The notes under the pieces were generated by a model, which worked only from the letters and a program-made list of their open reading frames with translations, was not told the origin of the DNA and did not search any database. Shown piece by piece: positions 25,231-29,974 of a stretch of 64,000 nt of DNA. Source of the stretch: Desulfosediminicola ganghwensis (GTDB lineage Bacteria > Desulfobacterota > Desulfobulbia > Desulfobulbales > Desulfocapsaceae); NCBI RefSeq assembly GCF_005116675.2, contig NZ_CP050699.1:1077001-1141000 (forward strand), in the 5' to 3' direction. A program made the translations under genes and the position numbers. Each line of letters opens with the position of its first letter. Within the stretch, counting starts at the first letter, position 1.

Positions 25231-27084
25231 CTATTCTTCAGGGCTGATGCTGAGCCAGGCCTTGTTCAGTTCTTCCATATCGGCTTGCATGTCCAGAGCC
25301 ATTAATTTTTCCAGGTCGGCGTTGTGCTTCTGGTACATGCTGATGTACTGCTCTTCGTCCTTACGGTGAATCTTGTACAGCTCGGGCATGGTCTCTTCAT
25401 CTTTCTTTCTGAAAAGTCGTTTTAGTTTATATGCCTCGTAGGGGTGCACACCGAGTAGCCTGAGCGTGTCCTCGCCAAGTGAGAGTGCACTGCCGAAGGT
25501 TTCACGCCGTATGGTGGTAATCCCGAGATCCATCAATTCATAAACCGAACCGCGGTCCAGGGCATTGGCAGCAATCTTCAGGTGGGGGTAATGTTTTCGA
25601 ACCAGTTCTATCAGCTCCCGGGTCTTTTCAATATCACCGATGGTGATGACCAGAACCTCTGCTTCGGCTGCACCGGCAGACTCCAGCAGATCGAGTCGGG
25701 TGATATCGCCGTAGTAGACTTCGAACCCGAATTTTCTCAGCACTTCAACATTTGCCGCGTCATGGTCGAGGATAACCGGCCGGATACCTGCCGAGATAAG
25801 CAGACGTCCAAGATCTGTCCCCATTCGGCCGAAGCCGGCCATGATAACCTTTTGTCCACCTCGTTCTATATGATCGGCTTCTGCCGTTTCGGGAGCTGGT
25901 GTCGATTTTTCGGAGATCTTTTCATAGGCGATAAAGAGCAGTGGTGCCAGAAACATGGAGATGGCAACTGCGGAAATCAGCGGATCGATAGTTTCAGCGG
26001 TGAGTACTCCGTTGGCCTTGGAAAACTGAAAAAGCACAAAGGCAAATTCACCTCCCTGGGCTAAAGCTACAGCAAAGAGTGAGCGTTGTTTGCCACCTAT
26101 TTTGAAGATCAACCCTGTGGCTATCAGTATAAGCCATTTAATCGCGATCAGACCCACCACCAGGGCGGCGATCAAAGTTATTTTTTCCAGGATCATGGTG
26201 AAGTTCAGGCTGGCACCGATCGAGATAAAGAAGATACCGAGTAGCAGCCCCTTAAATGGCTCGATGTCGCTTTCAAGCTCGTGGCGGTATTCGCTGTCGG
26301 CCAGCACCACACCGGCCAGAAAAGCACCAAGTGCGGGAGACAGACCAACTGCGATCATCAGTAGCGAAATGCCCACCACGATGGCAAGGGCCGCAGCAAC
26401 GAAAATTTCGCGTACCCTGGTGGCGGCGATGGTGCGGAAAATTGGGCGGGCGGCGAACTTACCGAGAAAGAAGATAGAAAAAATAGCTCCAAGCGTAACC
26501 AGTATGCGAAGGTAGCCGGGTAGGGCGGCAATATCAAAGAGCGCAGGGCCATGGTGGTCTGCTCCATGGGCAACGACGGTCGCCAGCAGTGGGAAAGCTG
26601 CCAGCATCGGGATGACCGCCAGATCCTGAAAGAGCAGCACGGAAAAAACCGAACGCCCGGCGGAGGTGTTCATCAGCCCTTTCTCCCTGAGGGTTTGCAG
26701 AACAATGGCGGTGGAGGAAAGGGAAAGGGTCATGCCGATGGCCAGTGCCTGTTGCCAGGGCAGGAAAAAGGCGGCGATTCCGGCAATGGCCATGCTGGTG
26801 GCTATAACCTGAAATCCTCCCATACCAAGGATGGGCGTGCGCATTTGCCAGAGCAGGGAGGGCTTGAGTTCCAGGCCGACCAGAAAGAGCATCATGACCA
26901 CGCCGAATTCGGTGAAATGCATGACCTGCTCAATATCAGCGATCAGCGATAATCCGAAGGGGCCGATCAAAATGCCGGCTATCAGGTAACCCAGTACGGA
27001 GCCCAGCCCGAATTTCTTGGCAATCGGCACGGCGACGGCTGCAGCAGCCAGAAAGATAAAGAGTTGTAGCAGAAACAATTCCAT
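25231..27084 (-). CDS. kefC: KefB/KefC-type potassium:proton antiporter
   Basis: 617 residues. CPA2 antiporter domain of about 12 helices (residues 1-385; [46 protein letters not shown]) followed by a TrkA-N/RCK domain with the Rossmann motif [17 protein letters not shown] (near residue 410). The C-terminal helical tail is charged. Kef systems release K+ and acidify the cytoplasm during electrophile stress, gated by glutathione adducts in enterobacteria. The ancillary oxidoreductase gene lies 2 bases upstream, which supports the Kef call. Confidence 0.9.
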
Positions 27085-27086
27085 GG

Positions 27087-27689
27087 CTATCCCTTGAGTA
27101 CCCCTTTGAGGTCGCTGTTGATGTGTGAAGATTTAACCGCTTTGCCAAGATTGATGCGATTATCACGTAGGGCAATGATGAAACGCCTGTAATCCTCGGC
27201 ATGACTGTTGATTTCCTGCTGCGGCATGCCACTGTGGGCGGCAAGCACGGCAAATGGTGGCAGCCAGGTCATCTTGCAGAGTTTGGCAGTGGCACAGAAA
27301 GGGGAGAGCAGATGTTTAAGGGAGAATGGATTGTCTCCTTTCTTCAGGTAGGTTGCCTGATCTCCGGCGCTGAGTACATTCAAAAATAGTTTGCCGCTTA
27401 AGGCGTTGCCCTTGGAACCATAGGCCCAGCCGTGCTGTAGTACCAGATCGAGCCATTCCTTCATGATGGCCGGCGTTGAATACCAGTAGAACGGGTGCTG
27501 GAAGATAATCACATCATGAGCTTCACAGAGTCTCTGCTCATGATCCACATCGATTAGAAAGTTGGGGTAACTGGAGTAGAGATCGTGGAAGGTGATATTC
27601 TCAAGATTCTCGACGGCCTTACGCAAAGCGGAGTTGATACAGGAGCGATTAAAAGCCGGGTGTGCAAATACTATGAGTATTTTTTTCAT
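27087..27689 (-). CDS. KefF/KefG-like NAD(P)H quinone oxidoreductase
   Basis: 200 residues, flavodoxin-like fold of the NQO family: [17 protein letters not shown] binds the FMN phosphate and [19 protein letters not shown] is the second loop. This is the family of the ancillary subunits that activate KefB/KefC and also reduce quinones and electrophiles. It is the first gene of the pair with kefC (gap 2 bases), so it is very likely the activator. Confidence 0.88.
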
Positions 27690-27932: not shown

Positions 27933-28577
27933 TCAGATGGTTTTCAGTAGTTCGACTATCCTGGTCGGGTCTGGGCGCCATGTGTAATCCGGGTGGACTT
28001 CCACGTTTTGTATAACCCCATCTGTGCCGATAATGAAACGACCCGGCAGCGGCAGTCGCCAGAGATCATCACCGTTAAACCGGTCCAGTTCGATGCCGAA
28101 ACTGGTGTAGATGGTTCTCAGATCTTCGGGCAGGCTGAAGACCAGACCATAGAGACTGGCCACATTGTTGCCGGGATCTGCCAGGACAGGGTAATCGAGC
28201 CCATGCTTTTTGATTACCTGCTTGGAGTATTTCGGCAGTTGCGGCGAGATGGCAACGAGGCTCGCGCCAGCAGCACGGATATCGTGAGCGACTTCCTGCA
28301 AAGCTTCCAGCTCTGCATTGCAGTACGGTCACCAGACTCCTCGATAGAAGGTAAGCACCAGCGGCCCCTGGGAGAGCAAATCTGCTGAGCTGATATCATT
28401 GCCATTCTGGTCACAGAGGGTAAAGGCCGGGGCTGACGCTCCAACGTTCAATACGTCATCCATGATACCTGAGCTCACCAGCTCCGCCGTTGAGTTGTGC
28501 ATGATTGCAAGGGTGTCCGCTGGGATACCGGCTTCTAGTTGTTCGCGCAGATTATCGAGTTTATCCTGTAGATTCAT
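27933..28577 (-). CDS. Peroxiredoxin-like selenoprotein (in-frame TGA read as Sec83)
   Basis: Read through one in-frame TGA (28331-28329) the gene codes for 214 residues from ATG 28577, which has AGGAGG upstream. The TGA falls exactly at the peroxidatic position: FYRGVW-U-PYC, where relatives have GVWCPYC. The frame stays open on both sides, with AhpC/TSA-type sequence before it (APAFTLCDQNG) and after it (EVAHDIRAAGASLVAISPQ, LPLPGRFIIGTDG). A SECIS-like hairpin directly follows the TGA. The product should reduce peroxides with Sec83 and Cys86 as the active pair. A nonsense mutation or sequencing error is the alternative. It lies 59 bases after the ALDH gene, likely one transcript. Confidence 0.82.
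28296..28323 (-). promoter_or_regulatory. Bacterial SECIS-like hairpin
   Basis: Starting five bases after the TGA, CTGCAA pairs with TTGCAG (6 pairs); an inner stem AGCT/AGCT (4 pairs) closes a GGA apical loop, with a small 5' bulge between them. Two G residues sit in the apical loop 21-22 bases after the TGA, the place where bacterial SECIS elements carry the SelB-contacting G. Shape and spacing are as expected for selenocysteine insertion. Confidence 0.65.
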
Positions 28578-28636
28578 TGTGACCTCCTTGGTCATTGACT
28601 GACTGATCAGATCAAACTGAACTCAGCTGAAGAGAA

Positions 28637-29974
28637 TTAACGATTTACAACCCTCACCTGTGCAAACTGTCTATGGCCTTCGGTTGAACCGTGAAAACCA
28701 AGCCCGCTCTGTTTTGCTCCAACCCAGGGGGAGTCTCCTTCGCCCCCCACACCCTGGTTGATACCGATCATTCCAGCTTCGAGCCGACCGGCAATTGTGT
28801 TTGCGCCGGAACCGCCAAAGACCACAGCTCCCAGGCCATAGTCACTGTGATTGGCTCGTGTTATGGCATTTTCAATATCGCTATAGGTGCTGATGCAGAT
28901 CAGTGGCCCAAAGGTCTCTTCCTGCTCGACCCGCATGTCTGGTGTCATGCCTGCTATTACGGTGGGCTGGATATAGGGTGGTTGCTGGTCGTCAGAGCCC
29001 AACAGCAGCTTTGCGCCCTTTTCAACAGCATCCTTTATGTGGGCCAGAACTGTGCGATGCTGGCGGTGATTGACAATGGGGCCGATGTTGACGTTGTCCA
29101 TGTTCCATGGGCCAACCCTGTACTGACGGGCGTAACCTACCACCAACTCATTGAATTCGGCGGCCACAGTTTCATCCACGTAGATTCGCTCGGTGGAGGT
29201 ACACATCTGGCCAGCGTTCTCGAAACTGCTGGCAACGGCAAAACGAGCGGCGGCGGCGAGGTCGGCATCGGCCATGACGAGCATCGGGTCATTGCCGCCC
29301 AACTCCATTACCAGGCGTTTAAGACTTGTGGCGGCTCTTTGCATGATATCTTTACCTGCGGCACGGGAGCCGGTAAACGCGATCATGTTCACATCGCTCT
29401 CTACCAGCATTTTGCCCTGTTCTCCGTCGCCGTGGACGATCTGCAGCACATGTTCAGGTAGTTTTCCTGCCACCAGGTCGAAGAATGCCTGGGCGATGAG
29501 CGGCGTTTCTTCCGATGGTTTCCAGATGACAGTGTTGCCTGCAACCAGGGCAGGAATCAGCAGGTTGTTAGCCATTGCCAGTGGATAATTCCAGGGGGAG
29601 ATCACTGCCACGATCCCGAAGGGTTTGTATTCAATTGTTGTTCGCCCAATAGAGGAAGGCTGCAGGGCGTTCGCTACCGCCTGAGCAATGTAGGGGCCGC
29701 CGTAGATGGTGCCGCTTACTTCACCGGTGGCGCGACGGATATCCTTCCCCATCTCCCGGCCGAGAAGCTCCGCCAGCCGGTGAAGTTCCGGCTCGGCGGC
29801 GGCCCATGCCTTCTCAACCAGGCCGGTGCGTTGTGCTGTGCCGAGATCACTCCACTGGGCGGAGGCTGTTCTGGCCTGGATAACCACTTGCTCTATCTGG
29901 TTCTCCGTTGCCACCTCAACCGCCCCGAGCAATTCACCATTGCCGGGATCAAATGATTGCAGTTGTTGACTCAT
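28637..29974 (-). CDS. NAD(P)+-dependent aldehyde dehydrogenase (succinate-semialdehyde type)
   Basis: 445 residues, slightly short for ALDH. The NAD site shows SPWNYPLAMANNLLIPAL and FTGSRAAGKDI; the general base Glu is in MELGGNDP and the nucleophile Cys in NAGQMCTSTERIYV, followed by EETFGPL. Closest in motif content to succinate-semialdehyde or similar dehydrogenases; the true aldehyde is not known. It precedes the peroxiredoxin gene on the same strand, which suggests detoxification of aldehydes and peroxides together. Confidence 0.9.
   Translation of the reverse strand: MSQQLQSFDPGNGELLGAVEVATENQIEQVVIQARTASAQWSDLGTAQRTGLVEKAWAAAEPELHRLAELLGREMGKDIRRATGEVSGTIYGGPYIAQAVANALQPSSIGRTTIEYKPFGIVAVISPWNYPLAMANNLLIPALVAGNTVIWKPSEETPLIAQAFFDLVAGKLPEHVLQIVHGDGEQGKMLVESDVNMIAFTGSRAAGKDIMQRAATSLKRLVMELGGNDPMLVMADADLAAAARFAVASSFENAGQMCTSTERIYVDETVAAEFNELVVGYARQYRVGPWNMDNVNIGPIVNHRQHRTVLAHIKDAVEKGAKLLLGSDDQQPPYIQPTVIAGMTPDMRVEQEETFGPLICISTYSDIENAITRANHSDYGLGAVVFGGSGANTIAGRLEAGMIGINQGVGGEGDSPWVGAKQSGLGFHGSTEGHRQFAQVRVVNR

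What the first reader, a model, noticed from the sequence alone, without database searches (positions are those of the whole stretch)
28296..28331. Peroxiredoxin-like gene with TGA at the catalytic cysteine and a SECIS-like hairpin
The TGA replaces exactly the peroxidatic Cys of GVWCPYC, the frame continues for 131 codons with clear family sequence, and a two-part stem with a GGA loop sits right after it, as in bacterial SECIS elements. This makes selenocysteine far more likely than a random stop. Standard annotation would split the gene in two.
Basis: partly seen in the sequence, partly recalled or inferred. Interest (0 to 1): 0.82.

Follow-up and report, generated by a model that had tools for sequence, protein, structure and literature searches.

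The report
Bacterial selenium-containing redox enzyme gene
A gene that looks cut in two by a stop codon is really one gene for a selenium-containing redox protein: the stop codon is read as selenocysteine with the help of an RNA hairpin just behind it, which is a known kind of bacterial gene in a bacterium already known to be rich in such genes.

Summary
On the minus strand, 28577-27933 is one 214-codon gene of the AhpC/TSA (Prx-like) family with TGA at codon 83 (28331-28329), in GVWUPYC. In the class, 42 matches in 38 of 257 genomes: 40 hold an in-frame TGA; all 34 of these that I read, plus one from a Nitrospirae MAG, have it at this codon; more distant relatives have Cys. A 9-bp hairpin with a GGA loop follows, 20 nt from TGA to loop, as in the published bacterial SECIS model. 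The best new evidence: synonymous codons are frozen exactly there; of 212 codon columns the two with the largest excess are U+7 and U+6. The genome has selC, selB and two selD genes that carry TGA themselves; selA was untestable, because the place where two congeners carry it reads N. "Peroxidatic" is too strong: the TxxU/C motif of true peroxiredoxins is missing in 42 of 42 read, UxxC/CxxC is invariant, so a thiol-disulfide-type oxidoreductase fits better. Genome length equals that of Desulfosediminicola ganghwensis IMCC35004, in print with 40 known-family and 5 new selenoprotein genes. A sound member of a known kind, probably counted already.

The parts
27933..28577 (-). Prx-like (AhpC/TSA, PF00578) selenoprotein gene, 214 codons and stop TGA (27935-27933)
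   Evidence: read-through frame; PF00578 102.3 bits against cut-off 26, PF08534 76.4 against 26.6; relatives
28582..28589 (-). ribosome-binding site AAGGAGGT, 4 nt before ATG 28577
   Evidence: sequence, read by eye
28329..28331 (-). TGA read as selenocysteine (codon 83)
   Evidence: TGA at the same codon in 35 of 35 Sec relatives read
28320..28322 (-). TGC, Cys 86, second half of the UxxC motif
   Evidence: Cys at U+3 in 42 of 42 sequences read
28297..28317 (-). bacterial SECIS hairpin: 9 bp, GGA loop 28308-28306, loop 20 nt after the TGA
   Evidence: -11.5 kcal/mol, p 0.023 against synonymous shuffles; synonymous constraint at U+6 to U+8; model R1, built without this gene, 57.8 bits here and 9.2 at the next place in the window
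28637..29974 (-). aldehyde dehydrogenase gene upstream on the same strand, 59 nt away; perhaps one transcript
   Evidence: PF00171 415.6 bits; a similar ORF lies upstream in L063 (by eye)

Best explanation
A selenoprotein gene. SelB carrying Sec-tRNA binds the hairpin at 28317-28297 of the mRNA while the ribosome stands on the UGA at 28331-28329 and puts in selenocysteine, so that a 214-residue Prx-like protein with an active-site U-P-Y-C motif is made (recoding inferred from sequence; mechanism from established knowledge of bacterial Sec insertion). The selenol most likely attacks a disulfide or peroxide bond, and Cys 86 resolves the selenenylsulfide, which thioredoxin or the like reduces (inferred; no substrate is shown).
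For: TGA in frame in 40 of 42 matches in 257 class genomes; at the Sec codon in all 35 read, 34 of these from the class and one from a MAG of another phylum, L038. Cys at that codon in 7 relatives used as controls. Protein similarity goes on behind the TGA, 57-65% identity to six relatives, dN/dS 0.10-0.16 in the 3 of 6 where dS was measurable. SECIS-model hairpin: 35 Sec genes mean z -2.21 against synonymous shuffles, 23 of 35 with p < 0.05; 7 Cys genes mean z 0.14, 0 of 7. Synonymous identity at U+6 and U+7 is 1.00 against 0.51 and 0.23 expected. tRNA-Sec 75.4 bits, anticodon tca; SelB 384.7 bits against cut-off 242.25; two SelD over cut-off, each with one TGA at the Sec site; four formate-dehydrogenase-like genes with in-frame TGA before His.
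Against: SelA was not found, though its syntenic place is unreadable. No compensatory base-pair changes support the hairpin: 0 of 9 pairs in A1 and 0 of 6 in A2 change on both sides, and column shuffles are not exceeded. 13 of 35 Sec genes do not reach -7.5 kcal/mol in my hairpin search. The plain folding-energy test is weaker (own z -2.44; 21 Sec mean z -1.32, 7 Cys 0.00). The third highest synonymous excess lies at U-7, outside the hairpin. Relatedness of the rows is not corrected for. No protein was seen.
Confidence: 0.96

Rival explanations
1. A pseudogene or a sequencing error: the TGA is a chance nonsense codon in a Cys gene.
For: Distant relatives have TGC or TGT there; one relative of 42 matches also has a TAG and one has three TGA, so some copies may be decaying.
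Against: The same TGA in 35 relatives read, in different families of the class; constraint behind it; the frozen synonymous codons.
Confidence: 0.01
2. The UGA is read through, but as cysteine or another residue, for lack of SelA or under low selenium.
For: SelA not found in the copy searched; no mass spectrum.
Against: SelA is present in 51 of 58 relatives searched, two of them in the same genus and directly upstream of a gene that in this genome borders the unreadable stretch; two selD genes are kept and need Sec themselves by sequence.
Confidence: 0.02
3. Functionally a true peroxiredoxin whose peroxidatic residue is the Sec, rather than a thiol-disulfide-type oxidoreductase.
For: PF00578 and PF08534 match; the U is followed by Pro as the peroxidatic Cys of peroxiredoxins is (recalled).
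Against: Gly, not Thr/Ser, three residues before U/C in 42 of 42, whereas the catalogue gives TxxU for Prx (PMC13188914, passages); Cys three residues after it in 42 of 42. The genome has a separate gene with TPVU, L107. The best PDB match by sequence is ResA, a thiol-disulfide oxidoreductase, but a peroxiredoxin (5epf) is close behind.
Confidence: 0.3

Closest known systems
Prx-like thiol:disulfide oxidoreductase selenoprotein (PF00578, UxxC/UxxU; PMC13188914 and PMC9312934, passages; listed for Desulfotalea psychrophila and Geobacter in PMC1794560, passages)
   Same: PF00578 domain, UxxC motif, bacterial SECIS behind the UGA, sulfate reducers of the same class among the holders
   Different: I could not compare sequences with the named representative (WP_010940744.1), so whether it is the same subfamily is open
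Peroxiredoxin-like family protein cd02970, UxxS (PMC13188914, passages)
   Same: a Prx-like selenoprotein reported from a deltaproteobacterial symbiont
   Different: UxxS there, UxxC here in all Sec genes read; cd02970 could not be tested
Selenocysteine peroxiredoxin (TxxU)
   Same: PF00578 domain, Sec in the active site
   Different: no Thr at U-3, an extra Cys at U+3
Selenoproteome of Desulfosediminicola ganghwensis IMCC35004 (deep-Sep, PMC12013277, passages)
   Different: the list of sequences is in a supplement that I could not read; the passages I saw name no Prx-like gene

Membership tests
bacterial selenoprotein gene | in-frame TGA conserved in relatives, Cys in others at the same site | tested here: met
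   35 Sec and 7 Cys relatives read; 40 of 42 class matches with in-frame TGA
bacterial selenoprotein gene | SECIS hairpin: loop 3-9 nt, stem 4-16 bp, G in the first two loop positions, 16-37 nt from the UGA, at most -7.5 kcal/mol (PMC13188914, passages) | tested here: met
   own gene: loop 3 nt, 9 bp, GGA, 20 nt, -11.5 kcal/mol; no Rfam family matched
bacterial selenoprotein gene | selB, selC, selD in the genome | tested here: met
bacterial selenoprotein gene | selA in the genome | tested here: inconclusive
   no match over cut-off; the syntenic place reads N; SepSecS not found either
bacterial selenoprotein gene | selenium in the full-length protein | not testable with these tools
   needs labelling or mass spectrometry
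Prx-like thiol:disulfide oxidoreductase selenoprotein | PF00578 domain with UxxC | tested here: met
Prx-like thiol:disulfide oxidoreductase selenoprotein | groups with the named representative | not testable with these tools
   no access to WP_010940744.1; no NCBIfam model reached its cut-off, 0 of 17 listed
peroxiredoxin (TxxU/C) | Thr or Ser three residues before U/C | tested here: not met
   Gly in 42 of 42
cd02970 peroxiredoxin-like, UxxS | Ser at U+3 | tested here: not met
   Cys in 42 of 42

The most novel reading that the evidence does not exclude
Within this one protein family the SECIS has been rebuilt at least four times in different hairpin registers (loop starting 16, 19, 20 or 23 nt after the UGA in my best-hairpin search), while the UGA, the protein and one short stretch (GAG CTG in 31 of 35, G at both third positions in 35 of 35) stayed. 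If so, that stretch, not one fixed fold, is what SelB needs here, and the family is a natural series to map SelB recognition.
Probability: 0.4. Interest if true: 0.4.

Novelty: new member of a known kind. Interest (0 to 1): 0.22.

Why it matters
It corrects an annotation: the gene is one selenoprotein, not two fragments, and the same holds for its relatives in the class. As a family it gives a series of SECIS elements in one fixed protein context, with Cys relatives as natural controls, which could help to learn what bacterial SelB recognises. The kind of gene and the selenium-rich genome are both known.

Tried and rejected
SelA loss: searches found no selA in a one-contig genome that has selB, selC and selD, which looked like a Sec system without its synthase. 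Synteny with two congeners showed that the selA place reads N in this copy, so the idea was dropped and nothing more was asked about that stretch. An archaeal-type route was looked for and not found (SepSecS).

Covariation: no both-sided changes, so the structure argument rests on synonymous constraint and on the Sec/Cys contrast. Covariance model R1 finds the site in the window, but it also scores Cys relatives (33.6 bits in L039, down to 11.4 in L042) because it partly models the coding sequence, and Sec genes with other registers score 15.5 to 49.1; it is no test of Sec by itself.

Gene neighbourhood: read by eye, no conserved neighbour; an aldehyde-dehydrogenase-like ORF lies upstream in L062 (own) and L063, perhaps a different one in L082; TetR-like ORFs lie beside L074, L075, L091, L095 and L101.

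Other selenoprotein genes in the window: 194 TGA-interrupted frames; those left after an overlap filter (which drops this gene too) show no hairpin at or under -7.5. Of 10 read-through frames given to Pfam, 7 had matches and in none does the best-scoring stretch cross a TGA. This is not a full search.

The relatives were found with patterns that hold Cys at the Sec site, so that scan favours Cys relatives; its proportion of Sec to Cys was not used. The fold was not predicted.

Full report
What is there. The gene lies on the minus strand. Its likely start is ATG 28577, with AAGGAGGT 4 nt upstream, and it ends at TGA 27935-27933: 214 codons, with an in-frame TGA as codon 83 at 28331-28329. Standard ORF calling gives two pieces. 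The protein matches PF00578 (102.3 bits, cut-off 26) and PF08534 (76.4, cut-off 26.6) across the TGA. No NCBIfam model reaches its cut-off, 0 of 17 listed.

Relatives. In the bacterium's family, 21 of 93 genomes have a match at E 1e-20 or better, 22 matches, 20 of them with an in-frame TGA. In the class it is 38 of 257 genomes, 42 matches, 40 with in-frame TGA (one also with TAG, one with three TGA, some of them fragments) and 2 without. I read 34 of those 40; all 34 have TGA at the same codon, and so has L038 on a short contig of a Nitrospirae MAG, 60% identical. The next relatives in other phyla have Cys. Identity to six relatives behind the TGA is 57-65%, and dN/dS there is 0.10, 0.10 and 0.16 in the three comparisons with measurable dS; the other three were saturated. 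In a tree of 42 rows Sec and Cys are not two clades; the least number of changes is 6, of which well-supported branches force 3, and the clustering is no stronger than in shuffles (148 of 500 as low). Members of different families of the order are mixed, which suggests transfer or old paralogues.

The hairpin. Own gene: 9 bp, GGA loop, 20 nt from UGA to loop, -11.5 kcal/mol, which meets the published bacterial SECIS constraints (PMC13188914, passages). By chance about 5% of TGA triplets in the window do so too (136 of 2532; this one ranks 29th), so I tested it against the code. With codons redrawn synonymously, 35 Sec genes have mean z -2.21 and 23 of 35 have p < 0.05; 22 of 35 reach -7.5 kcal/mol. 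The 7 Cys genes have mean z 0.14 and none reaches either mark; rank test p 3.5e-6, not corrected for relatedness. Plain folding energy shows the same more weakly (21 Sec mean z -1.32, 7 Cys 0.00, p 0.007). Codon by codon over 212 columns, the largest excess of synonymous identity lies at U+7 (z 17.4) and U+6 (14.8); U-7 is third (12.9, unexplained) and U+8 fourth (10.2); the mean over all columns is 1.1 and the s.d. 2.4. Codons U+6 and U+7 both end in G in 35 of 35 Sec genes (GAG CTG in 31); of the 7 Cys genes only L041 and L075 have G at both, L041 with ATG. There is no compensatory change.

Registers. The best hairpin starts its loop at different places in different branches: 20 nt after the UGA in the window's group, 19, 23 or 16 nt in others (21 index positions aside, L080 gave a weak fold of its own). 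The alignments of two of these groups pair in 85.9% and 100% of cells in their own register and in at most 51.1% and 61.5% when slid. This suggests that the SECIS was remodelled while the UGA stayed. It is my most novel reading, and it rests on predicted folds only.

The Sec machinery. tRNA-Sec: 75.4 bits against a gathering score of 47, anticodon tca. SelB: 384.7 bits against 242.25. SelD: two genes, 373.5 and 355.9 bits against 125, each with one TGA, in GGGU and CGU before the conserved stretch. SelA: no match over cut-off. In 58 relatives searched, this genome included, 51 have a SelA match (49 over cut-off), among them 2 of the 4 of the genus. In those two selA sits directly upstream of a TPR-LOG-PilT gene row; in this genome the row is present, but the place of selA reads N. 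So selA is untested, not absent. Further TGA genes in the genome: a classical Prx with TPVU (L107), a Prx-like gene with GUVFC (L111), and four formate-dehydrogenase-like genes with U before His (L113, L114, L115, L117).

Function. U83 or its Cys and C86 are invariant, as are R79, G80, W82 and P84, in a 30-row alignment. The Thr of the TxxU motif is replaced by Gly in 42 of 42. That, and the CxxC pair, make a thiol-disulfide-type oxidoreductase more likely than a typical peroxiredoxin; the PDB sequence matches are mixed, ResA first (E 4.3e-10) and a peroxiredoxin close behind (7.3e-10). Substrate and partner are unknown. The neighbours (aldehyde dehydrogenase, two flavodoxin-fold reductases, a cation/proton exchanger with TrkA-N, enoyl-CoA hydratase) would suit a redox or electrophile stress setting, but the order is not conserved in the loci read.

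Identity and novelty. G000 has 5,653,142 bases in one contig, the very size that the deep-Sep paper gives for Desulfosediminicola ganghwensis IMCC35004 (PMC12013277, passages; Desulfobulbales). That paper counts 40 known-family and 5 new selenoprotein genes in it. Its sequence list is a supplement that I could not read, and the passages I saw name no Prx-like gene. Prx-like UxxC selenoproteins are long known (PMC1088965, PMC2398784, PMC1794560, PMC9312934, PMC13188914, all passages only), also in Desulfotalea of the same order (the order is recalled). In E. coli only 30-40% of ribosomes recode such a UGA (PMC4513850, abstract), so an 82-residue fragment is expected as well.

Noticed in passing
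L021 and L022 (own genome): Two selD genes, both with a TGA at the Sec site: the maker of the selenium donor itself needs selenium, twice over.
   Followed up: partly
L111, L107 (own genome): Two more AhpC/TSA-type genes with in-frame TGA: one with GUVFC (UxxC), one with TPVU (classical TxxU peroxiredoxin).
   Followed up: partly
L113, L114, L115, L117 (own genome): Four formate-dehydrogenase-like genes with in-frame TGA directly before His.
   Followed up: partly
L038: A 3.1-kb contig in a Nitrospirae MAG carries a gene 60% identical to this one with the TGA; transfer or a misbinned contig.
   Followed up: no
window 28331-28329 minus 21 nt upstream (codon U-7): Synonymous identity at U-7 is the third highest of 212 columns (z 12.9), upstream of the UGA and outside the hairpin; no explanation.
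   Followed up: no
window 25231-27689, minus strand: A flavodoxin-fold reductase gene directly before a cation/proton exchanger with a TrkA-N domain, like the KefF-KefC pair (names recalled).
   Followed up: partly
L073: One relative (G078) has a TAG besides the TGA in the matched stretch yet a full-length frame was read; not resolved.
   Followed up: no
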